The position numbers were made by a program, and so were the translations under genes. Below are positions 33,654-57,806 of a stretch of DNA of 64,000 nucleotides, piece by piece. The notes under the pieces were generated by a model. That model saw only the letters and a program-made list of their open reading frames with translations. It searched no databases and had not been told where the DNA came from. The stretch comes from Thuidium tamariscinum. Lineage: Eukaryota > Streptophyta > Bryopsida > Hypnales > Thuidiaceae. Positions within the stretch are counted from its first letter, which is position 1; the number at the start of each line of letters is the position of its first letter. The stretch covers positions 1,054,001 through 1,118,000 of the forward strand of contig OX344752.2 of assembly GCA_947034885.2 (NCBI GenBank), read 5' to 3'.

Positions 33654-33882
33654 CACTAGAAGAAAACCATGTTGAAATCCCTGAAATCACATCATGTAGT
33701 TTGTGTTGGGTTCCTGTTTCAAAACGCAGTCAAAATGCAGTGAAAACACAAAAAAACGCAGAAAAAGCATTTTTCTGCGTTTTTTTGTGTTTTCACTGCA
33801 TTTTGACTGCGTTTTGAAACAGGAACCCAACACAAATTACATGACGTGATTTCAGGGATTTCAACATGGTTTTCTTCTAGTG
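33654..33882. mobile_element. Foldback element with CACTA-type ends (long hairpin)
   Basis: 229 bp, almost wholly one inverted repeat: arms of about 114 bp match at all but two positions around a tiny loop near 33768. Ends are CACTAGAAGAAAACC; the flanks repeat CTT (33651-33653 and 33883-33885). CACTA ends with a 3-bp duplication point to the CACTA (EnSpm) superfamily. It sits between the protease and integrase regions of copia. Confidence 0.9.
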
Positions 33883-34116
33883 CTTGTCAAGTTGTTTTGC
33901 TGAAAACAAGTTCTTTGCAAGGTCAGGAATATGTAGAACATTAGATATGTACTTTTCTTCTCCATTAGTCAATCTGACATTGACATCACCATATCCTTGG
34001 ATGGTGTAAGAGGTGAAGTCATCACCTAGATAGACAACTTGGTCTTCATGATACTTAATATAGTTCACAAATCCTTCTCTTTGATGGCACATGTCTTGGG
34101 TTGCTCCAGAATCCAC
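33883..34116 (-). pseudogene. Copia aspartic protease region
   Basis: Encodes the protease active-site motif as VDSGATQDM, then copia-like HIPDLAKNLFSAKQL near its end. It follows gag in the same frame across a single TAG (34120-34122), one C-to-T change from CAG. Its C-terminal end is cut by the hairpin at 33654-33882. Confidence 0.85.
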
Positions 34117-34119
34117 ATA

Positions 34120-35790
34120 CTAGGTGGAATCTATGTGTCCTTGAGTTATTGAGGCTACAACATAGAGTTTGTTATTAGATATAGCAAGATTTGTTTGTCT
34201 CTTGCCATTTGTTTTTTCTGTAGCAATTTTGGTTCTACAGTCTCTAATGTGATGCCGGGTTTTTTTGTAGTAATAACATTTCTTTTCAACTAGGAAACTC
34301 TTCTTTTCAAAAGGTTTAGAGCCACTACTTTCCACTTTTGAATCTAAACTTTTCTTGAAGTTCTTGTTAAAATATGGTTTCTTACCTTTGTTGAAAAATT
34401 TCTTTTCAACATATAAAGTTGATGAATTATCAGAAGAGGAATTCATATCTTTGATGAAAGTCTCTTCTTGAATTAAATCCGTTATTAAGGTCTGCAAAGT
34501 AATACCAACTTGCCTTCTTAATGAACGAATGAACGATTGATAATTTTGAGGAAGACTCCTCATTAAAATAATCACAACTTCTTCATCTGGTATTTTTGAA
34601 CTAGTTGCAAGAAGTTGTTCTGAGTGGGCTCTAAAATTGTAAATGTGTTTAACAACACTTGTGTTTTCTCTCATTTTGAGATTGTGTAATTTATCTTTTA
34701 AATGCATTTTGGTCACTATGTCTTGTGATTCAAAAATACTGATCAATTCTAACCAAGCTAAATTTGATGTTTTACAGGATTGTATATGAGAAATGATTGA
34801 GTTTTCAAGGCAATTGTTAATGATGGTTAATGCTAATGCATCATGATCCTCCCATAGACTTATGGGTGATTGCAAGAAACACTTGTCCTATTTTGTGTCA
34901 CACTACGTGTGCTGATTTGTTTTTTGGCCATAACTTTTGTGTTTTGGCTCCGATTGACTCAAGATTTGTAGGGAAGGTACTCATAACTATCATAAGCCTT
35001 CCATAATTTTTTCATAATTTTCAAAAATAATTTACTATCCAAAAATAGACCCTGATTGGATGTCACACTTGGTAGTTTAGGGGTTTTTAGTACTATGGAG
35101 TACCTTTTTTTTAATGATTTTAAGATGAAATTTAGATGAGATGGTCTTCTAATAGACTTATAGCTCTCCAAGGAAGGATTTTTAAAAATAGTTAATTTTA
35201 TGTGGTGTGGAGGTCTACAAAGTGAGCTCCCTTCTGCTTGTATTAACATGTAAAATATTATTTTGGTGGGTTTTTTTGTGAATGACCATATCCATAAAGT
35301 TTTTGCAAATGGACACTTTTTACTTTTTGAAAATATCTATTTTTACTATTTTTCCCTAATTAGAACATGAAGGTATGTATTTTCTGGAGGTTTGGCACTT
35401 TTCAAGTTCTCCTACTTAGAGAATTTTTCTATCCATTTCCTTTGGTGAAAACCTTCATCTTAGAGGTATATACACTATTCATATTTTTCAAATTTTTTTC
35501 AAATTAATTTTCTAATTTTAAAGTACTCCCGAAAAAATCAGCCAAACGCTACAAAATCGGCAGGTGTTTCTTGCAATCACCCTTATACTTCCTACTCCTG
35601 AGGAAGACAAGTTAGGAATTCCAGCAGCTATTTGTGCTGTTGTTGGTGCCACTGGTAAGAGTTGTTTACCACTTACTATAGGCCATAATTTTTTTGCCTT
35701 GAAAATGAGAGTCAATCTATGTTTCCATATGTTGAAGTAAGAGCCATCAAATTTGGTGAAATGACTTATGTCAATCTTATGTGATGCCAT
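34120..35790 (-). pseudogene. Copia gag, split by a transposon insertion
   Basis: Starts at ATG 35790 (MASHKIDISHFTKFDGSYF, typical copia gag opening) and runs to about 35587, is interrupted by the 719-bp element at 34864-35582, then resumes to 34120. The second part has the UBN2-like capsid region (MHLKDKLHNLKM, IILMRSLPQNYQSF). The zinc knuckle near 34250-34290 reads C-YYY-...-H-...-C: its second cysteine is missing, so the knuckle is defective. Confidence 0.88.
34864..35582. mobile_element. Short non-autonomous inverted-repeat transposon inside copia gag
   Basis: 719 bp, ends GGGTGATTGCAAGAAACACT (left) and GGGTGATTGCAAGAAACACC (right, read inward), with a perfect 4-bp target duplication TTAT (34860-34863 and 35583-35586). 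The first ~240 bp align well with the left end of the 13.7-kb element, sharing TTTTTTGGCCATAACTTTTG, GGTACTCATRACTATCATA and TTTTTAGTACTAT. No coding capacity. Confidence 0.93.
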
Positions 35791-35792
35791 TG

Positions 35793-36312
35793 TTAATATT
35801 CTCCTCTTAAAATTGCTTGTATTTCACATTTTTCTATGAAATCTTCAGGAAAGTTTTCTATGTTTACTTCATTGAAATTGTTTATTGCTTCAATATATGC
35901 AATAGGTGCATTTCTAATTCCATACACTAGTAGAAATCTGCGTTTGCCTCAACAAAATCTACTTGACGTGTTTGTTGAGGCAAACGCAAAAACTGTGTTG
36001 AAAAACGCAGAAAACGCAGTTTTTGTGTTTGCCTCAACAAACACGTCAAGTAGATTTTGTTGAGGCAAACGCAGATTTCTACTAGTGATATACATTTTCT
36101 GCAGATTCTAAGGGTTGTTCTACTTGTTCATGCTCTTGAATTGGAATTGCATCTAAAGGTAATTGTAGAAATGCATTATTAAAGTTTGCATTTGCAATTT
36201 GAAATGCAATTTCAATTTTGGCTCTTTCTGGCTCGAAAATGATTAGATCAAAAACATCCTTGCTTACACTTTCTACAGCAGGATTTGCAGTGGAATTCTT
36301 AGGATAACACAT
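35793..36312 (-). pseudogene. Small leader reading frame upstream of copia gag, interrupted by a hairpin element
   Basis: An ATG at 36312, 15 bp inside the 5' LTR, opens a frame (MCYPKNSTANPAVES...) that runs to the hairpin insertion at 36087. On the far side the same frame continues (IRNAPIAYIEAINNF...) to a TAA at 35795-35793, two bases before the gag ATG. Without the 163-bp insert and its 3-bp duplication this is one frame of about 115-120 codons. It matches no gag or pol domain I know. The tight stop-start spacing suggests coupling to gag translation. Confidence 0.6.
35925..36087. mobile_element. Foldback element with CACTA-type ends, arms internally palindromic
   Basis: 163 bp. Ends CACTAGTAGAAATCTGCG, 3-bp flanking duplication ATA (35922-35924 and 36088-36090), arms of ~70 bp with one mismatch. 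Each arm is itself an inverted repeat (GTTTGCCTCAACAAA ... TTTGTTGAGGCAAAC). Closely related ends to 33654-33882. Confidence 0.9.
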
Positions 36313-36414: not shown

Positions 36415-37425
36415 GGGTGATTGCAAGAAACACTTGTCCTTTTTTTTGTCCCTTTGACCTTTAGGCATTAGAAAAAATCTGAGGCCTCCAAAGGGCCGTT
36501 TCGAGGCTGTTCCCCAAAATTGTTCCCTAACTTCTGGTCGCTGTCAGGGCGGCATTTACCCCAAAAAAAACAATTTTTTTTTGGGTCCTGAAATATGAAA
36601 AAAAGTCCAAAAAAAATTTCAAAAAAAAATAAAATTTATTACGTGGCACTCTCTCGACCACGTCGGATTTCAGTTCCCGTGGTAGAAACTGCGTTTCCAC
36701 AGTCCGGGAACCTACAGTCTTCTAATGCCCTCAGATTTCTTCTAATGAGGTAGTTTTTTGCTCATAACTTTTACATATTTTGTTCATTTGACTTGAAACT
36801 TGAAATGAAGTTGCCTACAAAAGTTTTACATTTTGTGTAATTTTTTCAATTTTTTCAAAATTATCTTACTATTTTTAAACTGCCCCCGATTGGGTGTCTA
36901 CTTTGGCCATTTTGGGGGGTTTTAGTCCTATTTTTGACCCAAAAATGCAAATTTTGAGTTGAAAATTGGCATGAAAGTACCTCACCTAAAGTTACGAAAG
37001 ACCTCAAAGAGATTTTTTGAAAATACTATACTGTTCAACCTCCACATATCTTCAAAGTGGCTGACTTTGCACAAGTGTGGGGAATAAAATTTATTTTTTC
37101 CAAAGATGAAATTTAATGGAAAAGAAATACCTTTACTTGGAAAAAAAATGGATTTTTCATTTTCATTTTTTGAATTTTTGAATTATTTTTACCAAATTAG
37201 TGAAAAAAGGGTTGTTTTCATTATATTTTCCATTTTCTATAACATTTAGAGAAAAAAATTCTTAGGTCTGAATTTCAAGAGACATGATATTCTCATTGCT
37301 CTTCAAATTATCCATATTTTTTTCAATTTAAAAAAAAACTATTTCAAAGGGTCATAATACTCATAGGACTCATTGATTTTGAGCCATTTTGAGACAAAAC
37401 CAGTAAGTGTTTCTTGCAATGACCC
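36415..37425. mobile_element. Short inverted-repeat transposon inside the 5' LTR
   Basis: 1011 bp, left end GGGTGATTGCAAGAAACACT, right end read inward GGGTCATTGCAAGAAACACT. It carries a 282-bp CACTA-like insert (36466-36747); without it the length is ~726 bp, like the other copies. The target duplication is imperfect (TTAT against ATAT). Its interior matches 25982-26738. Confidence 0.88.
36466..36747. mobile_element. CACTA-like short element nested inside the transposon in the LTR
   Basis: 282 bp with ends CATTAGAAAAAATCTGAGG and CATTAGAAGAAATCTGAGG (read inward), close to the CACTAGTAGAAATCTGCG ends of the hairpin at 35925, and a 3-bp duplication AGG (36463-36465 and 36748-36750). Its core (GGTCGAGAGAGTGCCACGT and GGGAACAATTTTGGGGAAC on the minus strand) is shared with 59803-60137. 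Confidence 0.8.
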
Positions 37426-40013: not shown

Positions 40014-40017
40014 CTAT

Positions 40018-40051
40018 GGGTGAATTCACGAAACACTTGTACTATTTTTTG
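40018..40051 (+). repeat. Left terminal inverted repeat of the 13.7-kb transposon
   Basis: Starts GGGTGAATTCACGAAACACT; identical to the right end for 30 bases and then one mismatch in the next four. It includes the 10-bp palindrome GTGAATTCAC. Confidence 0.95.
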
Positions 40052-40886
40052 TCACACGATGTGTGCTGATCTGTTTTTTGGCCATAACTTTTGTGTTTTA
40101 AACCTAAATGGCTCAAAATTTATAGGAAAGGTACTGATGACTATCATACACTTTACATAATTTTTTCATAATTTTCAAAAATAGTTTGTTATTTAAATAG
40201 TACTATTGATTGAATGTCACAAATGCCAATTTGGAGGTTTTTAGTACTATTGAGTACCCATAGTGAAGTCATTGGAGCTAAAACTTTTCAAGCTTGTTTG
40301 CGTGAGCGATACACACCTTATTTGAAAAAAAAATCTTGGAGTGGATTGGGCATGATCCTAAAGTTCACTTCATTAACCAGTAATTTCCAGACATTCAAAA
40401 ATAAGAATTCAAATTTTTCTTCCATTTGAAGCTTCTTCAACTCGTTGACAAAAATGGCCATATTTTAAATAAATTTTTTAGATGCATTTAGTAATTTCTA
40501 AAAATGAAAAAGCAAAACTGTTTTTTTTCATGAATTATCGCAGTCTGTGGCCTAGCATAGTACTTCAAGGTAGTAGCAAGCATTGCGTAATACTTGGGGG
40601 GGGCCCACTGAAAATGAACTTTGCAAACGTGGACTATCCACGTCACGCACTTCATGAATATTGTTGTCAGTAATTCATTGCTGATTATTCGATCATCGGA
40701 TTAGTACCGCCGCCACTGACATCTTCTGATTACAATCTTAACTTAGGGCTCTCAGATTTCTTTCTTTGAACTTCTTCGTCGTTGTGAAGCATTGTTGCCT
40801 TGTTGGATTGGAATGTCATTGTTGTCAATCATGCACTACTGTGTTCAGATCACTTGCAATTTGTTGGGGAACATGACGAGTAAAGC

Positions 40887-43800
40887 ATGGATGCGGGAGG
40901 GATGCAAGGTCGTCCAGGTCCGAGGACTCGAGAACTCAACGCAGTTGCGGCGATTGAGGAGCAACGACGACAGTGGAGAGAACGACAGCGTCGGTGCCGT
41001 GCTGCACAGGAAGTTGCACGACAAGCGGTACGTGACACAATGGATGGAGGAAGCGGACAAGAAGACCTTCGATGGGGTACCACAAGACATCGCAGTAGTG
41101 TTTGGAGAAGGTCTCAAAGAATTGCAGATTCTTTGAGTCAGTTATTAGGAGGAATTACAAGTGCTGATGTCCGAGCTGTTGTTCTGGAGAAGGTCTTTAA
41201 GGATCACCACGTGCGTGCATTGCTTCCAGATTACTATCCAAGTCCTGGAGAAGCACGAGCACAACGAGATATATTGCAGAACATTCGAGCGGACTTGCGA
41301 GCATTGAAAGTTCCTCATTCTTCTGGTATGTTGGCTCGAAAACGTGCTATCTTAGAAGCAGCAGTTTCAGAATTAGACTCAGACATCTCAAACTTCCACA
41401 ATATCTTGGGTACACGGAAGGAAAATTTGGTGGCTGCAATAGAGCGGTTGCGCTCCGCTACAACGGTTACATCAAGCCGTTTTCAGGTTCCAGCTCGTAA
41501 GAAAAGGGAAGGCGGGATTTCAGAAGAAGTCAAGGCCGCTGTTCTTCTATGGTGGACTGTAGAAACAAGGGTGACTCCACGGCGACGTGATGTGCGACGA
41601 AAACGCCTGGGACGTAACCTTTATGACACCCATGCTGCACATTTACTTCTGGAAAGTCAGGTGCCTCCTTTGCTTCTAACTTCTTTTACTATTCCTTGTG
41701 CTAGTAGCTGTAGTTGTTTTTTTATGCATGTCAAATACGAGTGCATGTAGTCCATTCATCTTCCACTCCTTGTGTACTATAAGGACACGGTGCCTCAACA
41801 TGATACCTTCTACTTTCCGTACAAACTTGACATATTACATAGTATTCTCTAGTGACGCTCTGTCCCCTCCAGCTTTTTACAGTCCTTTTTCCAAGGATAG
41901 GAATTATGTTTTGGCATTTTCTTCTTCTTTCTGGTTTTAGGGTCCTCGTTTCCATATGCTTAGATACTCCTCAATAGCACATTCACTTTCCAAAATTCAG
42001 TTGAACAACAACCAGAGTTTATTTCATATATAAATGACAAACAGTTAGTCTTCCTATTGCTTCTACATCATAGTTCTTTCTTGACAATACTACGTAGTAC
42101 TAACTTTGCTAAGCTTTGGGTTTAGTTCACCTTGTATTTGTACAGCTCATCCTTGTCTATATATGTTGGTACTATGAAATCCATTTCATTGCTACAACTA
42201 ATATTAGAAGTGAGGTAGGGACTTACATACTTGTAGACTGTGCAGAGGAACAGAGGTCCTATGTAATGAGGATGTAGTAAAGGTACTTACTTGTATTTCT
42301 TTAATACTGTGCACGAGTTGGATACCCTTACATATTGTTTCCAGAATTTATGTACCTAGTTCATAGGACTAACTTCTTTTACAGCACTTTCTTTGTTCAT
42401 TGTATTAACTCAGAGTACGTAAAGAGTACTGTATGTGGAGTATGCTTTACTAAAGACTACATTGTCAATGACATGTGCTCTTTGCAAAAACTCCCTTGGT
42501 AAAGTATTATACTATTTGCATATCCATATCTGTCCTATGAGGACTTTTAAGTGCTCTTGAGTATTGCTAAGCTCTTGCAACATCTAGTGAATTAGAAATA
42601 GTCACTTGATTTTCATTGTAGTCCTAAATGAAGTACTGTATACACTACATGGTCCTGTACTTCATGAGTGCATGCACTTCTTTTCAAAAACGTTTTATAC
42701 ATTGCAGTCTTCTTCAGTATTATGCATTACTTTCATTTGTTTGCTGCAGTACTATAGTCTTTTAAATAGTATAGATAGTACTCTCTATAGTACTCTGTAG
42801 TATTACAGTGTACTAAATCAAAGAGGCTGCAATTTTATTTTTTTAAAGCTTCTAATATTGATAGGATTTACTGGTACTAAATTTTTGCAAAGGCAGCTAT
42901 ACTGTCGTTTTGTGGATGCCCATCCTCATTTTTCCATTCAGTATACAGCATTTTTCAAGCTCCGGCCTTTCTTTGTCATCAAGTGCAAGGAGCGCAATGT
43001 GTGCTGTTGTAGGTACCACATTCAAGTGCTATATCTTCTGGAGGCCCTGAATGTGTTTCGTGACCCCCATAGAGGTGCTCATGTCCTCTTTGTTTGCGAC
43101 TGCCAATGCATTGTTTGCGATGTTGACGGCACAGGAGTTTGCAGTATTGGAAATAGTCAATATGCAGGGGTGACAGCGTTGTGTGAAGCTTTGTTATATC
43201 CGAAGATTGAAGGAGAAGAATTCCACCGACGGAAATGTCTAATGGGGGATTGCAGTGCATGTGGTGTACGTTTTTTCAAAGTCTACCCTCGTGAACAGGT
43301 CACAGATGCAAGAAGGACTATTCAGTGGAAGCAATTCCAATATGAAATTGTTGGGACATCAAGTGATGGTCGGCCCAAAAAGCGCATCAAAGAGGTTCTT
43401 ATGACAACGTCCTTCTCAGAATTCCTTGATTTCTTTACACCAACTGTGGAACAATTCATTCGCCACAATTTCATAGCAAAGTGGCAAAGTGAGCAAGCCA
43501 AACTTCTACAGTCCTGTTTGCAAAGAGGGGCCATTCTTACACACATTGACTTCTCAGAGAATTATACATTTGAAGCACAAAATGAGATCCAATCGATGTA
43601 TTACCATTCCGATTAAGTATCTATTTTGGTCCAAGTCACTTATTGTGCAGATGTTAAGGACGATGCTGTCCAAGAGGTTGGGCATCTAAGAAGAGAGACC
43701 CACTTCTACATCTCTGATGACAAGACTCATGATACCTTCTTCGCCCAACATTGCCTCCTCTTGCATAATCGATGGATGCAATCACGAGGACTCTCTCCAG

Positions 43801-45352
43801 ATTTTCACTATGTTTTTAGTGATGGATGCGCTGGACAATTCAAAGGTGCTAAAGCCATGTACTTTGTTGCAAGGTATGTAGTTCCCTTCACTTGGCTAAT
43901 GCTCTGAATAAATTCTTGTTAGTAGTCTTCTGTAATTATCTATAGTCTTCAATGACATCATCATTACCATGCAGTTTTCATTTGTAGGCCTAAGTATTAT
44001 GTTTGGCTCATTTCTATTCGATAGTACTAATAGGTATTTTTCTAGAGTCCTCAGTACTATGAAGTTGTTGATAGTACTATGAAGTTGTCGACAATACTAC
44101 GCTGTCTTTGTCAGAAGACATCTTCAAGCATAACATTGTCGTCACTTTGGTACATTCTTTTTTCATTTCGAAAGAAGGTTCTATAAAGGATGCCACAGCC
44201 TTCTATGCCTACATGAGATCGAAAAAAGTCTTTGTAGTACAATGTCACTAACTCTTTCTTCTTAAATTTCTGTAGGTACCCATCACTAATTGGAGGATGT
44301 AAGATGCTATGGAACTATTACGGAACAGGGCATGGAAAAGGCGAATGGGATGGGGCTGGAGCAGTCATTAAGAGGGCTCTTCGGACTGAGCAGCTATTGA
44401 ACCCACATAGACGCCTCCAAAATGCAGCAGATTGCGTTCTTTTTTTAGATGCTACTATGGCTGGACAGGTTCCCACCCGTTCTGGTGGAATGAGGTTCTC
44501 TCTTTTCAAATTCCAGACTTGTTGCAATTGATATATTGAATACCATTTCTCTTTTTGCAAGTTCTATTGACAAGTTTGTATTTACAGGTGTTGTAATACT
44601 TAGCATTGCTTTGACCCTACAAATTCTGGGTGTGCAGATCATATCGATACTTTCATCACATAGGGATAAATGATGTAGATCATGCAATTGGTGCAACTTG
44701 TGATCCAATTCCAGGCTCATCGAAGTTCCATTCCATTTTTGGTCTTGATGAACGTGACCCACTAAAACTGCTGGTGCGTGGCTTATCTTGCTTTTGTGGC
44801 CCTTGCTTGGAGGAAGACTTCCTTCACTGTGAGAAGAAGGCATATGTGAAACACTGGACTGTCTTGAAGATCCAACCACGGAATGTGCAATTAGCCACTG
44901 CACACTTGATCGATGAAGAAGATGATGACAGTTGGGAGTATGAATATGACGGTGATTGTATGGCTGACTTAGTACAAGTGGGAGACAATTTTGCCATTGT
45001 AGCTACTCCAGACAATGATGAAGGAGTCCCCTTCTATATTTTACAATGCCAAATTCCGAAACACACTGTACAGGAACAGTTCGACTGTGTTTGGGGAAGC
45101 CATTTTGAAGCCGGTGATTCTGTCATTTGTGGTACTTACTACCAGAAATGGGGACACCAAGGTGCAAACAACTATGTCTACTTGCGGAATTCAAGGCCAG
45201 CATACGTGGATAGCAGTTCTATTCTAGCATGCAAATTCCAAATGATTCCTAGGCAATATAGGGTCAAAGGTGGAGATACTGTATATACCTTGTCTGAGGA
45301 GAGTGTGGATGTCATTAACACTGCTCTAGAAGAATTGCAAGCAGATCTATAG
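40887..45352 (+). CDS. Transposase-like protein with D-D-D/E motifs, four exons, one in-frame stop
   Basis: Exons 40887-41660, 42897-43873, 44276-44494, 44638-45352; all junctions are GT-AG with consistent phase and give 894 codons. An in-frame TAA lies just upstream of the ATG (40881). Seen: arginine-rich coiled N terminus; block VKAAVLLWWTVETRVTPRRR; cysteine clusters NVCCCRYH (~294) and KCLMGDCSACG (~370-381); HIDFSENYT (D476), VFSDGCAGQF (D567), GKGEWDGAG (E607/D609); then CFCGPCLEEDFLHC and an SH3/BAH-like tail (GDNFAIVATP). The D-91-D-40-E spacing suits an RNase H-fold transposase that cuts and joins the element's ends in the nucleus. Codon 498 is TAA (43614), one change from CAA, with coding sense on both sides. 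I cannot name the superfamily with certainty; Sola-like is my best guess. Confidence 0.8.
41661..42896 (+). other. Large first intron of the transposase gene, rich in GTACT motifs
   Basis: 1236 bp between donor GTGCCT and acceptor AGGCAG. It contains many AGTACT, AGTACTA and TACTGTA-type words, clustered at about 42740-42812. No coding frame continues through it. Confidence 0.65.
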
Positions 45353-45972
45353 TCTACCTAATGCATGATAAATGCTAACTTTGCACTTCTAAGAACTCTA
45401 CATTTGGTACATTCTACTTGTAATCACAGGAGCAACAAACTTTAACACAAATGCATGTATAGCAAAGTCAGTTTACACTTGTATGCAGCAGTTTTGATAA
45501 CAATATTTGTTTTGCATTTTTGATAACTGTGTTTAGCATTGTGTCATGCCTAAAGGAATGTGAAAGAATCAATAATATTATTGCCATAGTGTACAAAGGA
45601 ACTTTGGTGCAGCACATATGTTTTCGAATGAAAAGAAAGTAGACTTTGTTATATAAGTGTCTATGTTCTGTACATGCTCATAGGTATAGTAAACTACACC
45701 TAGCATTCACTACCATAATTTTCAATTCACTTGAACTATAGGTCTGCAATGAATATTGATTCTATACAGTATTGTTGGTCATGATTTAGTACAGGCTAAG
45801 TACTGTCAAGTATTACCTTTGTATTACGTAGGACATAAAAAGAATCCTACAATAATACAAAGGTAGTACTAGGCTTTACTTTGGTTACACTTCCAAGCGT
45901 GGTACACAGTACTACGTCTTATTAGCCAATGTATTGTGCTACTGACGCTGTGGCATTTCTCATGTTCATTCA
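45353..45972. other. Convergent intergenic spacer of the transposon genes
   Basis: About 620 bp between the transposase stop and the SET stop, so both 3' untranslated regions and terminators should lie here. GTACT-type motifs recur at 45770-45925. Confidence 0.6.
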
Positions 45973-48758
45973 CTATCCTCTACACAACAGGCTGCCACAA
46001 TTGCAAGAGAATGGCAGTGGAATTCCATTGACATTGGTGAAGATACATCCATAGTCCCATGTCAATTCTTCGCCCTCTTCAACTTCCCTACTTGCGAAAA
46101 ATGCTACCTGTAGTAGAAAAGCATTGATGAGTCGAAAATTGTCGTTTGTATAACATCAATATTACTAACTCATCAAAAGAGAACTTCCAAATCATAGAGG
46201 TGAAGACGGCAATACTTACATGGTAAAGTGTCGGGATGTTAGAGTGCTCTATCCAGACAGGGATGTCCATTAAATTAGCATCTCCACATCTGCAAATGTA
46301 GTAGGCACGGAGAGGTAGGAATGAGCACAATTCAAAGCAAATTCAATATAAAGGGCAGCATGTCAAACTGTTTTATAATGGAAAGATAAAAGGAAGAAGT
46401 ATCTATACTACTGGGTATCACACCTGTGATTCATCCACCTGGATACGTTCGTGAACTCAGAAGCATCAATAGAAAGTAGGTCTTCATCTTCTAAGGTCAT
46501 TTCACATTGCCAATGTGCATCAAGAGCTAGAGAATACTTTGAAGGCGTTCCACGTCGCAGCATCTCAGCATTACTAATGACTTCCCCTGCATATTCAAAT
46601 ACGAAGCATCCCCGTTGTAGTCTCTCCAAGGTTCGAATTCCCCAGCCTTTTGAGTTGTCAACATAGAAGACCTAGCAAACACCCTTATAAGATCTCCAAA
46701 TTTGAATTTCCAAACATCAAAAATTACTTCTGAAGACAGAATTTGATTAATTTTCTACGAATTGCTGGCATTTCAATTAGCATAGTATCCTACTATTACA
46801 AAATTAATCTATAAGGAGGGTTCATGCTTCAAATAATTGTACCTCTAATTTCTTCTGTACACCAGCTTGCACCACTCTATTGTTATAGGAGGATGCACAC
46901 CGACAATGTTTATAGCACTCGTGGATGTAGTGTCGTTGAACATGCCCGCCACATTTTCCATTAGAGAACTCAGAGCAGCAGCTGTGTCCAGCGCAGCGAA
47001 CTAACCCTCCATTGTGTAGAGTTTTGTGCTTCAGGAACTACAAAACCAATGTCAAAGTAATTAGAAACTAGCAACCCTAGTACACTAGAATCTTAGACAG
47101 CTTTATCCTTGCCAAGAATAATAGGAATACATATACACCATACTCTATATTGACAAGTAACCATAGCAAGAATTACTTAAGAGAGATAAAGTTAGAACTT
47201 CACCTCCGTTATATGCTGGGGATGTAAAGCACCATCCATTGTGTATGTTGTTTTTCTACTGTCACATAGAACAGAATTCTTTGTACTACTATCAGAGCCA
47301 TTCACTTCGGAAAAGCATAAGCAGAAAATGTCCATGGTGCGGGCATGAGCCAATGCTGTTGCTGTCACTGACTCATGCAACACCGGACTACATATATAAG
47401 TGTAGCATTCATCGAATGATGACAAAGCATTTGGCGAAGCTGGATTGGCCAATAGGATAGGAACATGCTCCAAACCCTTTGCCAAGTCCCAAGGTAATGA
47501 CTGTCGTTCACCCTGTTCATAACAATAAGTCATACAACTGGCACGAAGTGCAAAGAAAATCTGGTTAGTAGGAAATCAAAAGAAGCAATATATAATAGAA
47601 TTCATTGGATGCCAAAAACTTTACAAAAAATTTGGACCAGCATTGGATTGCCCCCCCTCTTCGCATGACATAGGGCATGAGGTCTATCAAAACGGGGCCC
47701 AAGTCTTTGGGCCCCTTCACCTCTCTGAAGCCCTACGTCTGTGACACACCTCCAAGCTAGTCAACCCCTTCCCCCTCCACGGCTGGACTACTTTCTGTTC
47801 CAGACGCATGTCTGGAAGAGAACTACTTCTTACCCACCTCCTTCTGACCCCGTGTCCCTGCATGACTACCCACTTTAGGTATGATTTCATGTACAGTCGC
47901 TGTGGCACCCGGTCATGGTCGCAATTGCCTCTTATTGCTTGGAGGGGCGTTATCATCCTTTGATGCAACAGAAGATGTATGTTTACCTACAAAAGCATAA
48001 CAAGAACCCACAACTTTCTAACCACATTAGGTTGAACTTGTGTTTTTTAGCCACATATATAGCAATGAGCAAGAACTAATGACCAACTATAAGTTCATTA
48101 CACTTCTAATGTACAATGCAATGTTTGACACCATTACAAATCATAGAAGTTGTTCTTCTATTGCGAAGGTCAATTGAGCATAAAGTACTCGTCTACTCTC
48201 TCATGCTAGAACAAGAGTTCAAAGTGGACATGTTTACATGTAATCCACATTAAAGACAAAGAAATTTTTATTGTAACTATAACAACAATTGAATGCTGGA
48301 AGCGGGTGCATGATATACCTGATGACAATCCCTTCGAAGGCCCTTCTGCAGGGTTTGATGTGCCTAACACTTGCTGAGAAGTAATTGTAGCCTTTGTTGC
48401 TAATGTCTTCTGTTTCCCTTCTACAGAGTCCTTTTCCCGCAAAACCTGGCCAATACCTTGAATTTCTAGGGGGGCAGTTATATCCCACAGATCTTCGTCA
48501 TTCTGCAATTTCTTATTTCAACAGTCCACAGTCCACATAGGTTGTAGTAGCGTTATTTTTTACATGCACAATACAAGAGAACAGACTTTGGTAATGACTT
48601 CTAGGATTTTCCTTGCACTATACAATTTACTTTCTTTGAACTCGCCAAAAATGACTGACTATAATGAAAACAGGTAGAATTATTAGACAAGAATGCTGTA
48701 AATCATACCCACTGTAGTTACATAGTAATAATTGGATGCGTGGATAAGGAAACAAACC
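45973..48758 (-). pseudogene. SET-domain histone lysine methyltransferase (SUVR/H3K9 type), transposon-borne, stops in its linker
   Basis: Exons on the minus strand: 48758 (end of the preceding RING exon), 48502-48319, 47986-47625, 47512-47204, 47037-46843, 46671-46424, 46289-46220, 46107-45973. The encoded order is pre-SET (DLAKGLEHVPILLANPAS; HECYKHCRC...NRVVQ), SET (GWGIRT; FEYAGEVISNAEM; NHRC; ELTWDYG) and post-SET (CNCGSLLCRG) ending at TAG 45973. These are the cofactor-binding and catalytic signatures of SUV39/SUVR-type enzymes, which methylate histone H3 lysine 9. Exon phases join it to the RING frame upstream, 1290 codons in all. That join has TAG at 48829 and four stops in exon 47986-47625 (47915, 47825, 47759, 47735). 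Either the copy is dead or that exon is mis-drawn and SET has its own start. The SET part itself is intact. Confidence 0.8.
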
Positions 48759-48826
48759 TGTGGTGGTCCAGAGTCTTCACGACCTTTGCAATTGGTTTCA
48801 GAGTCGGAGTTAGAAAAATGCAGTGC

Positions 48827-51470
48827 CTAGGCATGGATTACTTTCACAGATTCCTTAGTAGTATTATCGACTATTGTAGCTTGGGCATCATTCAATGGAT
48901 GCAAGTGCACTGTATCAGGTGCAGGGATTTCTAGCTCAAGTACTGAATCTACGACAGTAGATTTGGGGGTTAACAGGGGACATTCCATATCTACATGTTG
49001 ACCTAGTAATGGACTGCCGCTTGCACCAGAGTGCTCTATGCTTGCAGCAATGGTAGAACCTCGTGAACCAAAAGGATTAGAAGTCTCGTCAACAGCAACC
49101 CTAGAAGGCATAGGAGTGACAAGCTGAAGTGCCTCAACTGGCATTGTCACATGCAACTGCGGAATAAAAAGTTGTTCATTCATACTCTTTGATAAGGTGC
49201 TGTCCGAAGCAGATGCACTAGGTGCCCCTATGTCTGAGGAGGCCAGACCTATACAATTATCAAGAGAGAAAAGTCAGTGCTATATAAAGAAATAAAGCTG
49301 ATGTTGCAAGCAAATGCACTGCCCACTTACGAAAACAAAGAAAATAGTTGGCAACAGGCTGACAGTGACTTACCAATGACAGAAACTGTCTTCAGCGAAG
49401 CAACAGGCAGGCACGTTGTCATCGAAGTCTGCACAATAGTAGTGGTGTTCTCTGCATCAAGTGCACTTCCTCCATGGCTGTCTATGCCATTTGCAAAGCC
49501 CCAACTTCTAGACCACAAGGGATGCACCGGTCCACAATTATGGACAGCACAAGCAGAATTCACTCTAAACCACTGTGCTGCACACCATGGGTGGTATACA
49601 TGTTGACAACTACAAAATAGGAAATCTCCGTTAGAGAAACCTTCCAAGCATATAGAGCATTGAAGAGCATTCAAAGTGATGGTAGATTCCATTTGTGGAG
49701 CTTTTTCCTCCAAGTGATGCAGTTGTGGAAGAGGACGGAGTACTGGTCCTTCACCGCCGGAGCTCAATTCATTGAGATGTTGTTGCAGACCTTCCTGACG
49801 AGCCACACAACGTTTCACTTTTTCTGTGAGCTCTTGAAAAGTACTCCGCTGTTGGGCTTCTATGTGGGCAAATTCATTCAACTTCTTCAGGTGGCCATCA
49901 AGTACTCGTTGAAGCAATTCCGATGCACCCTCCTCTTCCATTTCAGTCATAGTTTCACGTAGTTGTTGAATTCCCAGAAGTCGACCTCTATGCTCGTCAG
50001 ATGCAGCATCAGCCTTTTTCTTCACCTCTTCAGCGTTGACTTGCAACTTCTGTAGCTCAACGTGTACAAGGTCCAAGAGAATTTGAAGAGCATCCTTCCT
50101 GTAGAAAACAATACTTAGTGAATGAATTCGGAAGCATTTAGTAAAAAAAATTCAAAGCTGGAGGTCTCGTACCTAGTATTATTCAAGTGGACAGTGACTC
50201 CTACATGTATTACATTAGAATATGATGAATAGGGCGGTTTTCCTAAGTAAATGATGGAACTCTGTAATGAAGAGACAAAAAAAATTAAAAAAGGACCTCT
50301 AATGTCTGCTTTTTCTTTGTTGCAAGTAGAACTGAATGGCAATCATATATAGAAAATTGAGGCATTGGGGAAGAGATTATACCTAGCGGCCACCGCAGTT
50401 GCACTAAGACTGGATGGACATAGAGGCAACGCGATCGACTTGCCATCAACAGCGCCGCTACTGTTGTCATTGACGTTTTGAAATAGTTGTACTACCGGCT
50501 GCTTTGTATCTTCAACATCCAAGTACTTCGTGAATCCCTCTGCTGTCGCAACCTCAGTGAATGGTTTCTGCACCAGATCAGCAAGCCGATGAAGCCACAT
50601 TCTAGCACGCCTCGCGTAAGACCTTCGCTGATCAAGGTTTGTTTCCGCTGCAAAGCCAGCCCAATTAATTTTCACACCTTTTGTTTCCAAAGTCCACCCC
50701 ATAGCTAGTTCCTTGCCAATATGAGTATTGCAGTGGGGCTTCTGATAGCATAGGCAGTACAGTGACTCCACCTCTTTACGTAGAGCTGGAGTGAGCTTCT
50801 CTGTAAGGAGGAAGCCATTGCGTCCCTTCTCTTCACCAAACAGTGCTTCTACATCAACTAAGGGAACATCCTTTTCCAAGCGCAGCCGGTGCAGGTTGAC
50901 TCCATCTCGTCCCAAGTTGCAAGCAGTGGCAAAAATATCTTCAGACATTGCAGTTGGAGGCCGCTTCAATGGCTGAGAAAGGAAATGTAGTTGCTTGCGG
51001 CATTCCTCCTCTGAGTAGGTTCGGGAAGATGCAGTACTTTTCTTCAGCTTTGATGGAGTGGTGATGCAGACCTCATCAGCACTGTCATTGTCTGTATGGT
51101 TGTTGCTCTTAGATTGTGCAACATCGGATTGAGACAGAGGTGGCTTCTGTAGCTTTTTGGCGCTTGACCCTACCTTTCTTCTTCCAGGACTACTTGACAT
51201 AAACAATGATGCTGCTGTAGTTTTACTGGCTTTTCGCTTCTTTTGCATGGCACCATCTCCAGGATTGGGTACAGAGTCCTTTCCACCTTTCTGTAGAGTA
51301 CATTGCGCTTCATGCTGCATTGCCCTTCTCTTGCCTTTCTTCTCATAGGTTCTCGTTGGCATGTCTATGTCCTTGTCATCTCCCTCACTAGGCATATCTG
51401 ACGAAGGAGTTTCCTGAACTGAAGGAGGCTTCGGTCGGCTTTCTTTTAGCGATGTCTTCATCCTTGCCAT
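48827..51470 (-). CDS. RING-like finger and coiled-coil protein, transposon-borne; probably N-terminal part of a RING-SET protein
   Basis: Starts at ATG 51470. Exons 51470-50383, 50331-50297, 50200-50173, 50098-49374 and 49248-48758, with a TAG at 48829-48827 (codon 766). Seen: a basic, serine-rich, nuclear-looking N terminus (KKGKRRAMQ, KKRKASK); a region with CLCYQKPHCNTH (~codon 240); a coiled coil at ~392-500; then a finger CSICLEGF-...-CSCQHVYHPWC at ~531-556, spaced like a C3H2C RING, followed by CAVHNC. RING fingers usually recruit ubiquitin-conjugating enzymes; the substrate is unknown. The frame continues past the TAG (ALHFSNSDSETNCKG...) to a donor at 48757, so the TAG may be a mutation of CAG and the product may once have been fused to SET. 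Confidence 0.7.
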
Positions 51471-53707
51471 TCAAAACAGTACTGGAGATTGCAATCACTG
51501 AAAAGCGAGGAAGGAGTCATTAATCATAAGATATTCTAGAAATATTGTGGGGAAATAAGTTCATCTGATGATTTTCCTACAAATGTACACATTCAAAAGC
51601 ATTTTATTGTGATAACAATAAGACAGAACTGAAACAATAATACATTCAGAAGTAAAGAAATATACCTTGCTTGAAGTGATGTAGTAGAAGTCACCGAGTA
51701 CTACAGCACCACACACTAAAATAGAACAATCTGGTACAGTGCCTGCAATTCAAAGATGATGGAACCCCACCCAAAGAAAAGAATGGTGAAATCAAAAAGA
51801 AAGTTCTCAGTATTCAACCACAGTGTAGCACTTCATTAGTCACAAGACGTACAATATAGTATTACTGTAGTACACAAAGTCACTGAGGACTTTATACAAA
51901 GGTACTTGAAATACGCCGAACCATATTCGGTAGTACTGAAGAGTCCCTTGTAGTATTAGTTCAGTAGTGAATAATACTTTGTAGGTACCTAAGAATATTG
52001 TATAAAGAAGAATACGTCTATGTACTAAAGAAGCAATACTTTTAACTTTTCTAACACTACTCTGAAATTCACAAAGAATATTACATAAGAAAGAAATAGT
52101 ATTGTGCAAAGGACACACAGTACTACAAGAATTAAATTATTAATAACAACGTAAAGAAGCAACAAAATCTGAGTACTATGGATACAGCATGAATACAATA
52201 AGAGAGACAAAGTATAGAAAGTATGGAACAATGAATACAAAGCGTATAGATAGTAGTATCATAGCAATTTTGTTTTACCTCAAGTACTTGAAGATGTTGC
52301 TTCCAACCTGAAGGCAATAGAAGGCAGTGAATATTACTTCATAATGCTATAGAGGTATTGAAGTGTGACATGAAGTATAAGCAATGTATATGGATCAAAA
52401 GTAATATGACCCAAAAACACTGTATAGTACAGAGGACGTACATGTAAACATAATTGAATTCCAACTTCAGGGTATCCAGACATGAAGTGTGATATGAGTG
52501 CACCAAGTAACAATCCAAAAAGTCAAGCACAGTTCCCAAGAACTGAACGGCAAGTACTACAAATATAGAGACTTCTCACTAGTACAGTAATGAAAGACTA
52601 TGGACTTCAATGAACTAATGTAGTGATTTCTTGATGCATTACTTGTAATTTGTAGGGTAGTACTTTTACAGAAATCAAAGATTGGGTTCATGAGACTTCT
52701 ATTTGTGGACAAGTTCTAAACTCCACACCTTCATAATGAAAATACCAATTAAGAATTGAAGATGGCTAAAATGTAAAGGCTGTATTTTAAGCACTTCTGA
52801 AGAAGGCCCTTCAATACAAGTAGGACGCCCAATAGTAGTCACAGTTTACACAAAGAGGGAATTCCATTGGTATAACTCACTTGTTCAAGGATATGAGGTT
52901 GAATCCGCTAGCATTGTTCACTCCAAATTCTCCACAGAACTCCTCTTGTTAACTGGAAATTTAGCAGCAAGCCCCATATGTGTGATTCCACAAAACCCTA
53001 AGCAGTGCAAATACGCTCTCGTAGAGCAAAATCCCAAAGCATAGACATTTTTCTTGAAAAACCTAAAGAATGTGCCAAAAACCTAGCATTACGTTGTAGG
53101 TTGATAAAGAAGAAAGTGAGTTTCTGAAATTACCCAAACCATAGGTCACATTGTTCTTGCCGCAAGCCTCGCAACAGATGAAGACCTTTGCACGCACCAC
53201 TAAATTGCCGAACTCCACAAAACCCGAAAACCCCAATTGACGCAAATGATTTTCAGATGCATCTACCACATCGCACCTCCTTCATCTCAAACTACAACCG
53301 CCTGTTTTAGCACCCCCTTCAAGCTCTCAAATCCATAAACTTTTCTATCATGTGCAATTCACACGGCACCATTTCGAAGCAACTGAATTCGGGGAAACAT
53401 GCGGAGACATCGGAAAATGTCGGCGCCATCAAAGCCTGCCGACCAAACGAGAGAGACGACGATTGGATGAATGAAGTGCATCATCCAAATATCATCTGAA
53501 TTTGAAATGCGGATGATATTCATCCATCTTCATTGGACGATTTCACTTTTTCATCCTTGTCTAAGAATCAATGCTAAGCAAACACGTGTCATGAAGGCAA
53601 TGTATCCAAGATTCAAATGAACGGTCCAGATTTCCTCTTTTCCAATGCCAATAGTACTCACAGCACTTATAGTACTCGTAGTACTGAAGGACGAAAAACC
53701 AAAAACG
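51471..53707. other. Right non-coding region of the transposon: leader or promoter of the RING/SET gene, GTACT-rich
   Basis: About 2.2 kb between the gene start and the right end. AGTACT/GTACTAC words recur throughout, for example 51695-52135 and a tight group at 53652-53688 close to the terminal repeat. A short open stretch at 53063-53269 is described separately. Confidence 0.55.
53063..53269 (-). CDS. Possible small coding exon with a cysteine motif near the right end of the transposon
   Basis: The minus strand reads VVDASENHLRQLGFSGFVEF then ICCEACGKNNVTYGLG; a donor-like GTAATT follows at about 53131. A possible second exon near 52985-52890 continues in frame (FCGITHMGLAAKFP...) to a TGA. 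No ATG precedes it in frame, so it is either an internal exon, a GTG-started frame or chance. The cysteine pattern hints at a small zinc-binding protein. Not recognised. Confidence 0.3.
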   Translation of the reverse strand: MVDASENHLRQLGFSGFVEFGNLVVRAKVFICCEACGKNNVTYGLGNFRNSLSSLSTYNVMLGFWHIL

Positions 53708-53741
53708 CAACAAATAGTACAAGTGTTTCGTGAATTCACCC
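53708..53741 (-). repeat. Right terminal inverted repeat of the 13.7-kb transposon
   Basis: Inverted match to 40018-40051; followed by the CTAT duplication at 53742-53745. Confidence 0.95.
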
Positions 53742-53867
53742 CTATCAGTTCTTACACTGAGGTGAAATACCTTAGGCTGCAAATATTTTGTAAAGCTTTG
53801 AAGTACAAATCAAAATCAAAGCTAGGATCCTTTTGGGAATGCCCACAGGGAGGTTTTTTTGGCTTTA

Positions 53868-55719: not shown

Positions 55720-56706
55720 TTAGTTCACGGAAGTGCATACTCGCCGGATCTCGCCGGCGCTGCCCGTGAGCACCTCGATCTGGCTCATCACCACCATGGC
55801 CTCCGCAAAGTTGGAGCTGAATGTGGCCCAGTCAGTGTTCGCACGCACTGATCCTTTGGTACGCGAGTCCACCCACATGGTCTGATCGGAAATCAGCAAG
55901 CCGAGTTGGTTCACGATGTCCTTGAAGAACTGGGTGTCGAATTTCGTGGGAGTCAAATCCAGGTTGAGGTCGACGTCGATGATACGAGCCACAGGGCACT
56001 TCTTCAACAAGAATTTCGCGAGGGCGGATGGGAGTGTGGGATCGATTTTCTTACCGTGGATGCGGTCATCGAAGGCCGCGCATTTCGTGACGCCGATGGT
56101 GTGCGCACCAGTCAGGGCCACCATCTGCGCAGCGTTCAGACCCTTCTTCTGGAACATCTTCAACAGCACGGGCGCTGTGCTGTTGGGAAGCAGGATATTG
56201 GCCGCCGCCTCGGAAGCCCGCGAAACGGTGCCGTCGCGACGCCCAGCGGGCACGGTCCAGCCATGGCCTCCCGTCAACGTCACGGTGTCGCGCACGGCGA
56301 ATTGCAGCACGTCGGCGCAGGAAACGGTGCCCGGGCAGGCCTCCTCCACGGCGGCCTTGGCGGCGTCGATGGCGTCGAAGCCGTGGAGGGCGCCGTTGAA
56401 GGTGAAGGTTTTCTCGGAGGTGGGTCCGTCGAGGAGCAAGGACGCGTCGCAGCCGCGGACGAAGCAATCGTGGTAGGCGAGGCGGAGGACGCCGGGTGCG
56501 ACAGTGGGGTCCTTCTGGAACGACTTGAGCATGGACTCGTAGATGATGGTTTCCACGTTGGGGCACGAGTGCTGGTAGAAGCCCTCTCTGCAACCGCCAT
56601 CGCTGGAACTGGAGAGGCTTCGACTAGCAGACACGGGTGCGCTCACCAAGCTCAGAACGGCTAACACGGCCACCCAGCCCGCGAGTGCAGACCTCGAAAC
56701 ACCCAT
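55720..56706 (-). CDS. Class III secretory peroxidase, intronless
   Basis: 328-aa heme peroxidase that uses H2O2 to oxidise phenolic substrates in the cell wall or apoplast. The start is the ATG at 56706 (MGVSRSALAG), giving a hydrophobic signal peptide ending near residue 28 (VSAPVSAS). The mature part opens CREGFYQHSCPN. Distal site: R75 and H79 in LRLAYHDCFVRGCDASLLLD; calcium-site residues around D80-S89; proximal heme ligand H202 in MVALTGAHTIG. Paired cysteines are present (C39, C48, C81, C86, C124, C130, C209, C237, C324) and an N-glycosylation site NST at 175. Length and motifs are normal for the family, and no stop or shift is seen. Most seed-plant members have introns; this one has none. 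GC content is much higher than its surroundings. Confidence 0.95.
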   Translation of the reverse strand: MGVSRSALAGWVAVLAVLSLVSAPVSASRSLSSSSDGGCREGFYQHSCPNVETIIYESMLKSFQKDPTVAPGVLRLAYHDCFVRGCDASLLLDGPTSEKTFTFNGALHGFDAIDAAKAAVEEACPGTVSCADVLQFAVRDTVTLTGGHGWTVPAGRRDGTVSRASEAAANILLPNSTAPVLLKMFQKKGLNAAQMVALTGAHTIGVTKCAAFDDRIHGKKIDPTLPSALAKFLLKKCPVARIIDVDLNLDLTPTKFDTQFFKDIVNQLGLLISDQTMWVDSRTKGSVRANTDWATFSSNFAEAMVVMSQIEVLTGSAGEIRRVCTSVN

Positions 56707-57806
56707 CGTTCCAACTTCCAACCGATAAGGCCGAAGTTGGAGAATGCACGAAAATCAAAAGACCTAGAAACGAGTTCAGGAATTAATTCAAGCCGTGCAG
56801 TCTGACGTACCTAGCCTAGAGCTGACATGCAGCCTGAAAGCTTGAAACTGCTGAGAGACTGAGAGCTTGATTGATGAGAAAGCCGAAGTTTCTATGTACC
56901 ACCGACGGCTTTATCCGTGCACGGCTAGCTCAGTCCCGGCCACAGTCTATTCAGTTCTACTCTTTCCGCAAGTCCACCTAATAAGTCACCAGGCTCTCTG
57001 AGTGACAAAGCACAACGAAATTTCGACTATCCTCTCCTTGATCGATCTGCCAGTTCTGGACTCCAGGGGGGACCATTACTCCTCCCGTTGAATTTACAGT
57101 CTAGACCCAAATCACGACCCAGTTGGCAAGCTTCATCCGGTTGCACCAGTCGATTTCCAGCGTCGATCCACTCCCAAGTTTCCCCTGCAGCGTGAAATTT
57201 GGTTTTCGACGCACTCAGTTGGCCATTTCAACTCCCTTCACTGCCGCGGAACCAAAGTTTGTACTGGGAATCCGGTCATTTCAGTGAATACAGTAGCGTT
57301 GAAGGGGGTACACTTTCTCAAAGCGGTTTTTGAGTCCCTCTCATGAGTGGGACTCTGGATAGTACCCCGTATTTTATAAAAGTTTATGTACGATGCGTGG
57401 GTACGCGTGAAAGTGATGGTGGGGAAGAGGAATCTGAAGAGGGGTGTCTGCATGCTGGGACACGAGAGGGGCGTTTGAGAGAAGTCAATAGAGTTTTGTT
57501 TTGTTCTCGTTTCTTATCATTGCTTTGGACACGAATTGAGAGAAGAGAGAGTTTTCTAAATCGCTGCGGTAGGGGAAGGGGTTGACTGGGGATGAGCGTG
57601 GCTGGGACGATTGGATTGGATTGGATTGACGTACAGAGTGGCGGCCGGTGCATGTTTGTTTTTTGTTTTCAACAAATGAAACGGATTTCTTTGCAAGGGG
57701 GTAAACATACAAGCCCGTCAGCCACAAGTGGTCTGACGGAGATCAGGACCGTACCGTAGTATGCTTGATGTCTTTTTGGACGTAAGAGTGACGATCAGGA
57801 ATCTAA
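56707..57806. other. Upstream region of the peroxidase gene
   Basis: About 1.1 kb with higher GC than the flanking repeats, as expected for promoter and leader. No second gene is recognised, and short open frames here look like chance. Confidence 0.45.

What the first reader, a model, noticed from the sequence alone, without database searches (positions are those of the whole stretch)
45973..48758. A complete pre-SET/SET/post-SET histone methyltransferase encoded inside a DNA transposon
Seen: pre-SET cysteines, GWGIRT, NHRC, ELTWDYG and a post-SET CxCGSxxCRG end, read over six consistent splice junctions and wholly within the terminal repeats. Known: SUVR/SUV39-type enzymes methylate H3K9, the mark plants use to silence transposons; SETMAR is a primate SET-mariner fusion. 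Inferred: the element may mark its own chromatin, that of rival elements or host genes, to limit harm or hide from repair and defence.
Basis: partly seen in the sequence, partly recalled or inferred. Interest (0 to 1): 0.92.

Follow-up and report, generated by a model that had tools for sequence, protein, structure and literature searches.

The report
Jumping gene carries histone-modifying enzyme gene
In a plant genome, a large and varied family of jumping genes carries, besides its own transposase, a gene that joins a ubiquitin-ligase-type RING domain to a histone-methylating SET domain derived from a host silencing gene, which suggests that these elements carry a tool for acting on the chromatin that controls them.

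Summary
The SET domain is real. It is the C-terminal part of a 10-exon RING-SET gene (45973-51470, minus strand) inside a 13,724-bp TIR transposon (40018-53741, target-site duplication CTAT), tail-to-tail with the transposase. This copy is dead: two nonsense codons in the RING-SET frame, one in the transposase.

It is not a one-off. In the same 363-Mb genome, 103 of the 112 closest transposase loci have a convergent SET match within 16 kb (0-1 in shifted controls); 98 of 112 have a convergent RING. In ten loci compared, the SET core shows purifying selection (dN/dS 0.16-0.42, 11 of 11 non-independent pairs). It groups (99/99) with the host gene I take for the plant's SUVR and shares its three visible intron positions, so it probably derives from an SUVR gene, introns included. 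Among 38 more distant transposase loci, 17 have the RING and 2 have SET.

SET-carrying DNA transposons are already known (HarbingerS and MuDR, oomycetes). New here, within my searches: a RING-SUVR fusion, in a plant, in a 4-bp-TSD (Sola-like) lineage, at about 100 loci. Enzyme activity, and which way it acts on silencing, are unknown.

The parts
40014..40017 (.). target-site duplication, left copy (CTAT)
40018..40051 (+). left terminal inverted repeat (GGGTGAATTCACGAAACACTTGTAC...)
   Evidence: 97% over 34 nt against the right end
40884..41660 (+). N-terminal part of the transposase gene (TPn), conserved in relatives
   Evidence: tblastn matches in 8 of 10 fetched relatives
43056..43610 (+). 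transposase TPa, with the first catalytic Asp (IDFSENY)
43614..43616 (+). in-frame stop (TAA) that breaks the transposase in this copy
43650..43877 (+). transposase TPb, first part, with the second catalytic Asp (SDGC)
44274..44468 (+). transposase TPb, second exon, with the third acidic residue (HGKGEWDGAGA)
44615..45352 (+). C-terminal transposase part TPc
45973..46107 (-). RING-SET gene exon 10: end of SET (ELTWDYG) and post-SET (CNCGSLLCRG)
46220..46289 (-). RING-SET gene exon 9
46424..46671 (-). RING-SET gene exon 8: SET core (GWGIRT ... NHR)
46843..47037 (-). RING-SET gene exon 7: pre-SET, second part
47204..47512 (-). RING-SET gene exon 6: pre-SET, first part
47838..47986 (-). RING-SET gene exon 5; in-frame TGA at 47913-47915 in this copy
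48319..48502 (-). RING-SET gene exon 4
48758..49248 (-). RING-SET gene exon 3 (no known domain); in-frame TAG at 48827-48829 in this copy
49374..50098 (-). RING-SET gene exon 2, with the RING finger
   Evidence: zf-RING_2 3.3e-7
50383..51470 (-). RING-SET gene exon 1: start codon and a conserved N-terminal domain without a Pfam match
53708..53741 (-). right terminal inverted repeat
53742..53745 (.). target-site duplication, right copy (CTAT)

Best explanation
SHOWN OR STRONGLY SUPPORTED BY SEQUENCE: the window holds one dead copy of a large TIR transposon whose lineage carries two convergent genes, a D-D-E/D-type transposase and a RING-SET gene. The SET half groups with a host gene that I take for the plant's SUVR and shares its visible intron positions, so it was most simply captured as genomic DNA with introns. 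It has been kept by purifying selection between diverged copies. INFERRED: RING and SET are one spliced protein, and SET was joined to a RING gene that some more distant relatives carry without a SET. INFERRED: the protein works in trans as a chromatin writer, with the RING as ubiquitin ligase and the SET methylating H3K9, coupled as in SUVR4, whose activity is modified by ubiquitin binding; the RING would stand in for the missing ubiquitin-binding WIYLD domain. MOST LIKELY ROLE (inferred, direction uncertain): it changes the H3K9 methylation state of the element's own chromatin, and so helps the transposon family manage host silencing.
For: Element with TIRs and TSD. 10-exon frame, all nine introns GT-AG and in phase. 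Of the 112 closest transposase loci, 103 have a convergent SET within 16 kb, against 0, 0 and 1 with SET places shifted by 300, -300 and 700 kb. 98 of 112 have a convergent RING within 22 kb, against 0, 0 and 2 shifted. SET+post-SET dN/dS 0.16-0.42 in 11 of 11 pairs among ten loci, upper bootstrap bounds 0.26-0.78 (pairs share loci). Catalytic NH and C, and WDY, in 18 of 18 transposon SETs printed. Tree: ten transposon SETs with the host SUVR candidate, 99/99. Intron positions shared with the host gene: two complete introns and one donor (against 89). Pre-SET exon without an upstream in-frame Met in 11 of 14 loci; behind an AG that is part of an in-frame TAG in 8 of 14. SUVR4 and ubiquitin: passages of PMC4260354.
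Against: No expression, protein or chromatin data. Arabidopsis SUVR1 and SUVR2 show no methyltransferase activity in vitro despite a conserved SET, which the authors of the SUVR2 paper put down to substitutions at sites such as the one matching Phe 281 of Dim-5 (passages). The transposon SETs have Trp in ELTWDY where EHMT2 has Phe, a site that I believe is the same (recalled). Near-identical pairs have SET dN/dS 0.28-0.76 and once 4.66 at dS 0.004. Pre-SET is less constrained (0.35-0.69, two of 11 upper bounds above 1), and the transposase more (0.09-0.16 in the window group). A phase-1 donor after the RING was seen in only 5 of 11 loci with the RING motif; one has a phase-0 donor and five have no such donor. 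In the window itself, S9 and C an in-frame Met does precede the pre-SET. zf-RING_2 matches only 3 of 15 rows of A2, and no family matches its first row. Several fetched copies have stops of their own.
Confidence: 0.6

Rival explanations
1. Anti-silencing: the RING-SET protein opposes host silencing, by competing with host SUVR complexes, by ubiquitylating host silencing factors, or by moving H3K9 out of the silencing methylation state, as VANC proteins (VANDAL elements) and TET/JBP (fungal transposons) oppose silencing by other means.
For: Other transposons keep genes thought to serve this purpose (PMC12730594 passages; VANC papers seen only as listing and abstract starts). RING half under purifying selection in the window group (dN/dS 0.15-0.30, alignments that may run into introns). 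A 2026 title in the listing calls H3K9me3 a permissive mark in Arabidopsis seed germination.
Against: A decoy needs no intact SET catalytic core, yet SET+post-SET has lower dN/dS than pre-SET in 10 of 11 pairs. No DNA-binding specificity was identified.
Confidence: 0.35
2. Self-restraint or placement: the protein deposits repressive H3K9 methylation on its own copies, on rivals or at target sites, limiting harm or steering insertion to heterochromatin.
For: SET of a silencing-type family with conserved catalytic residues (18 of 18).
Against: Selection for self-restraint acting in trans is weak in most models (general knowledge). No insertion-site bias was tested.
Confidence: 0.3
3. The SET gene is cargo: a one-off or Pack-type capture of a host fragment with no function for the transposon.
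For: This copy and several fetched copies are broken; some near-identical pairs show little constraint.
Against: 103 of 112 loci in a fixed convergent order, three separate groups of transposon SETs in the tree, dN/dS below 1 in 11 of 11 pairs.
Confidence: 0.04
4. RING and SET are two separate genes on the same strand rather than one fused gene.
For: About 2-3 kb of intron-rich DNA lies between RING and pre-SET; no cDNA was available; a clear phase-1 donor after the RING in only 5 of 11 loci.
Against: One continuous in-phase 10-exon frame in the window. No Met before the pre-SET exon in 11 of 14 loci. Stops at different places in different copies.
Confidence: 0.15

Closest known systems
HarbingerS and MuDR transposons of Phytophthora that encode a SET histone methyltransferase (Kojima and Jurka 2014, cited in PMC12730594; passages seen, the originals not seen)
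   Same: DNA transposon that encodes a SET-domain protein.
   Different: Other transposon superfamilies (PIF/Harbinger, MuDR) and oomycetes. Here: 4-bp TSD, a transposase without a Pfam match, a plant, and a SUVR-type SET joined to a RING. I could not compare the SET sequences.
Sola superfamily DNA transposons
   Same: 4-bp TSD, TIRs, acidic-triad transposase, some elements over 15 kb, reported in the moss Physcomitrella (passage of PMC10741241).
   Different: No Sola sequence was available to compare, so membership is unproven. The Sola passages seen mention no SET or RING gene.
Plant SUVR1/2/4 (Arabidopsis) and this genome's candidate SUVR gene near C1:43260000-43265200
   Same: SET sequence, LDADW and NHRC-x-D-x-N-L motifs (host piece), three visible intron positions, tree position.
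   Different: No WIYLD domain found; a RING and another N-terminal domain instead; inside a transposon.
SETMAR (Metnase)
   Same: SET domain and transposase associated.
   Different: SETMAR (recalled) is one domesticated host gene that fuses SET to a mariner transposase; here the SET is in a second gene on the other strand, at about 100 loci.
TET/JBP-carrying fungal transposons; VANC of Arabidopsis VANDAL elements
   Same: Transposons that carry a gene acting on silencing.
   Different: DNA demethylation or sequence-specific anti-silencing, not histone methylation plus RING.

Membership tests
Sola superfamily | 4-bp target-site duplication | tested here: met
   Matching 4-bp flanks in 3 of the 4 elements with recognisable ends: window CTAT, S9 GCTA, S2 AGCA; S6 has the ends but no matching flanks; no ends found in the other 6 of 10 loci scanned. 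Window and S9 ends were found without asking for a TSD; S2 by a scan that asked for one, its ends agreeing with the edges of its alignment to S6.
Sola superfamily | acidic-triad (DDD) transposase | tested here: inconclusive
   Asp 222, Asp 305 and Glu 345 invariant in the 7-8 rows that cover them; a conserved Asp 347 lies two residues on. The third residue could be E or D; no fold could be computed.
Sola superfamily | transposase sequence homology to a known Sola | not testable with these tools
   No transposase family in Pfam (20 rows), no PDB match, no Repbase at hand.
Plant SUVR1/2/4 proteins | pre-SET, SET and post-SET of SU(VAR)3-9 type | tested here: met
   SET in the window and pre-SET PF05033 in relative S1; the window's own pre-SET does not match PF05033
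Plant SUVR1/2/4 proteins | closest to SUVR rather than SUVH or EHMT | tested here: met
   clade with the host SUVR candidate, 99/99, apart from EHMT2 and two SRA-domain (SUVH-type) host proteins; 15 rows, one SUVR
Plant SUVR1/2/4 proteins | N-terminal WIYLD domain | tested here: not met
   none in the window exons or the 15 rows of A2; one WIYLD match in the whole genome, about 4.4 kb upstream of the host SET exon. So: SUVR-derived SET, not an SUVR.
HarbingerS | PIF/Harbinger transposase (3-bp TSD, recalled) | tested here: not met
   4-bp TSD; no Harbinger transposase match in Pfam
SETMAR | SET fused to a mariner transposase, TA target site (recalled) | tested here: not met
   SET and transposase on opposite strands; 4-bp TSD

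The most novel reading that the evidence does not exclude
A plant transposon lineage has built its own one-protein heterochromatin writer by joining a RING ubiquitin ligase to a stolen host H3K9 methyltransferase. The ubiquitylation step feeds the methylation step, replacing the host's separate ubiquitin-binding domain, and the transposon uses it to set its own epigenetic state.
Probability: 0.3. Interest if true: 0.92.

Novelty: new variant of a known kind. Interest (0 to 1): 0.74.

Why it matters
Plants silence transposons through H3K9 methylation. A transposon lineage that has captured a host gene of that pathway's enzyme family and holds it at about 100 loci gives a direct test of whether transposons can write, and not only evade, the marks that control them. 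The RING-SET arrangement also offers a compact model for ubiquitin-coupled H3K9 methylation. Of 148 SET loci that I pasted from two capped searches, one of which used the transposon SET as query, 101 lie beside this transposase, so SET gene counts in such genomes need transposon filtering.

Tried and rejected
Rejected: one-off capture or neutral pseudogene. Thought unlikely but not excluded: RING and SET as separate neighbouring genes. Rejected: 63439 as the right end of the element. The 239-nt repeat 40018-40256 / 63201-63439 is only 82% alike, and 62579-63439 is a separate short element with its own TACA flanks, whereas 53741 matches the left end at 97% and has CTAT. The TSD scan also gave low-complexity AT-rich pairs in S2 and S10, which I set aside.

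Literature searches found no SET gene in Sola-like or moss transposons (open-licence PMC papers, listings and abstract starts). A text search of PMC7466625 on Physcomitrium transposons has no hit for Sola or SET domain. The paper that I recall as naming Sola is not held.

Choices that affect counts: the cut at rank 112 was made by eye at the drop in identity, before counting. SET places were pasted by hand from capped lists (169, 132). Loci were picked by hand. The 11 pairs come from ten loci and are not independent; window/S9 was left out there because dS was saturated, and S1/S2 is near saturation (dS 1.7). Alignments can run into introns; for SET I rely on the exon-wise.

Full report
What is there. 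On the minus strand at 45973-47512 lie five exons that encode an uninterrupted pre-SET/SET/post-SET region. It matches Pfam SET at 8.9e-17 and EHMT2 at 1.5e-28. Pfam's Pre-SET model does not match the window's exons but does match the relative S1 (3.5e-13). Upstream on the same strand are five more exons. Together they make a 10-exon frame of 1197 codons with nine GT-AG introns, all in phase, from a start codon at 51470 to the stop at 45973. The upstream half has a conserved N-terminal domain without a Pfam match, and a RING finger (zf-RING_2, 3.3e-7). The frame carries two nonsense codons in this copy (48827-48829 and 47913-47915). The plus strand has a transposase gene in four pieces (40884-45352) with one nonsense codon (43614-43616). 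The three relatives aligned over the broken exons (A, B, C) are open at both RING-SET stops, and A and B have stops of their own elsewhere. So the window shows one dead copy.

The element. A 34-nt terminal inverted repeat (97%) at 40018 and 53741 is flanked by CTAT on both sides, giving 13,724 bp. Two relatives have ends with matching 4-bp flanks: S9 (C2, 16.8 kb, GCTA) and S2 (C11, 16.5 kb, AGCA). S6 has the ends but no matching flanks, and no ends were found in the other six of ten scanned. The window and S9 ends were found without asking for a duplication; S2's were found by a scan that asked for one, and agree with the edges of its alignment to S6. The transposase has Asp 222, Asp 305 and Glu 345 (numbering of the open 636-codon frame in L019) invariant in the 7-8 rows that cover them, with a conserved Asp 347 beside the third, as in DDE/D transposases. 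It matches no transposase family in Pfam and nothing in the PDB. A 4-bp duplication, large size and the reported presence in a moss fit the Sola superfamily (PMC10741241, passage), but no Sola sequence could be compared, so I call it Sola-like.

Not a one-off. Ten SET loci picked by hand from the Pfam hit list were read over 20 kb each. All ten have transposase pieces TPb and TPc on the opposite strand, and 8 of 10 have the RING. Genome-wide, a 91-residue transposase query gave 150 matches from 150 scored of 316 candidates. Of the 112 best, 103 have a SET match within 16 kb and all 103 are convergent, with the SET 3' of the transposase; with SET places shifted by 300, -300 and 700 kb the convergent counts are 0, 0 and 1 (which adds three matches to those used). 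For the RING, 98 of the 112 have a convergent match within 22 kb, against 0, 0 and 2 when shifted. Nine of the 112 have no SET match nearby; they were not read.

RING without SET. The 38 more distant transposase matches (ranks 113-150, 51-70% identity) include 2 with a SET nearby, ranks 120 and 121, which at 70% and 66% are the closest of the 38 by identity. Of the 38, 17 have a convergent RING, one of them with a SET match; the other 21 have no convergent RING and, apart from rank 120, no SET in these lists. One RING-only locus, C3:45381706, was read: an open 654-codon transposase and no SET in the 9 kb between it and the RING. All searches scored only part of their candidates, so some SETs and RINGs could be missed. 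The transposase tree has a long branch to this row and cannot say whether SET was added in one lineage or lost in the other. I prefer addition, because the SET has its own host source.

Origin of the SET. One WIYLD match, the N-terminal mark of SUVR1/2/4 proteins, was found in the genome (C1:43265066, minus), and a SET exon lies about 4.4 kb downstream on the same strand (C1:43260405). I take them for one host SUVR gene; the piece between was read only in part (L038, L039). In a tree of 15 rows this host SET and ten transposon SETs form a clade (99/99) apart from EHMT2, two host proteins with SRA domains (SUVH type) and one with PHD and FYR domains (ATX type); the order inside the clade is unresolved. 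Two complete introns and one donor visible in the host piece lie at the same codons and phases as in the window gene (after KLE/RLQ, phase 0; inside NHR, phase 2; after YH, phase 0). One window intron (between exons 6 and 7) is absent from the host. Shared introns mean capture of genomic DNA rather than of a processed transcript. The intron inside NHR is seen in the window, S1, S2, S3, S7, S9, B and the L004 group; others have been lost in some of these. No WIYLD was found in the transposon proteins.

One gene. In 11 of 14 loci there is no in-frame Met between the last stop and the pre-SET core; the exceptions are S9, C and the window. In 8 of 14 the pre-SET exon begins directly behind an AG that is part of an in-frame TAG, so it needs an upstream exon. 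Of the 11 loci in which the RING motif was found, 5 (S1, S8, S2, S7, window) have a phase-1 donor GGTAAG behind it, B has a phase-0 one and 5 have none of this form. The stops in the middle exons differ from copy to copy. No transcript was available. In the RING half, zf-RING_2 matches 3 of 15 aligned rows and zf-RING_16 4 of 15, the first row none; a profile of the 15 rows finds RING finger protein 24 in the PDB at 0.0065.

Selection. On exon-wise alignments, SET plus post-SET has dN/dS 0.16-0.42 in 11 of 11 pairs from ten loci, with upper bootstrap bounds 0.26-0.78. Pre-SET is 0.35-0.69, two upper bounds above 1 (1.12 and 1.01). In the window group, RING is 0.15-0.30 and transposase 0.09-0.16. 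Near-identical pairs are mostly nearer to neutral (0.28 to 0.76 for SET, one at 4.66 with dS 0.004), as expected of copies decaying after insertion. So the SET half was under selection along these lineages, though less tightly than the transposase. In 18 of 18 transposon SETs printed the catalytic NH and C and the WDY motif are present.

How it may work. SUVR4 is an active H3K9 methyltransferase whose WIYLD domain binds ubiquitin and helps it convert H3K9me1 to H3K9me3, while SUVR1 and SUVR2 show no activity in vitro (passages of PMC4260354). In the transposon protein no WIYLD was found and a RING is present. The simplest coupled model is a protein that attaches ubiquitin and methylates H3K9 on the chromatin of its own element. 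Whether this opposes or reinforces silencing is not decided by any result here; I give 0.35 to anti-silencing and 0.30 to self-marking or placement, and the rest to other roles or an inactive SET used as a binding module.

Known or new. [quoted passage not shown] originals not seen). I found no report of SET in Sola-like or moss transposons (open-licence library only). What appears new is the RING-SUVR fusion, the SUVR origin with shared introns, the plant host, the transposase type, and the breadth across one genome. Hence: new variant of a known kind.

Limits. No other plant genome could be searched. Counts come from capped searches and are lower bounds.

Noticed in passing
34864-35582, 62579-63439, 60803-61802, 36415-37425: Short elements with the same kind of TIR (GGGTGANTNCANGAAACACTTGT, 11 matches in the window with up to 3 mismatches against 0.01 expected). 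By eye the first two have identical 4-bp flanks (TTAT, TACA), so they look MITE-like; the last does not; the flanks of 60803-61802 were not checked.
   Followed up: partly
33654-33882 and 35925-36087: Two near-perfect palindromes (113-nt arms at 98%, 75-nt arms at 97%), the first within the region of a copia-type retrotransposon.
   Followed up: no
30310-35823: Ty1/copia-type retrotransposon region on the minus strand (RVT_2 1.4e-55 in the ORF 30313-31956).
   Followed up: no
55720-56754: Open peroxidase ORF about 2 kb right of the element (Pfam peroxidase 2.8e-71).
   Followed up: no
G000 C1:15993718-15994902, C2:35038945-35040141, C11:6179210-6180397, C5:20128668-20129864: A second RING gene (N-terminal domain plus RING, frames up to 517 codons open) about 9-12 kb upstream of the RING of the RING-SET gene: perhaps elements with two RING genes, or nested ones.
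   Followed up: no
G000 C6:26861890 (L041), C4:27934630 (L042), C4:20596070, C11:1614777: SET exons at dispersed places without a listed transposase nearby but with a RING match about 4 kb upstream. Two were read and are nearly identical: probably a further lineage of the same elements.
   Followed up: partly
G000 contig C11 (17.5 Mb, about 5% of the genome): Holds 19 of the 150 transposase matches: possibly a transposon-rich or sex chromosome.
   Followed up: no
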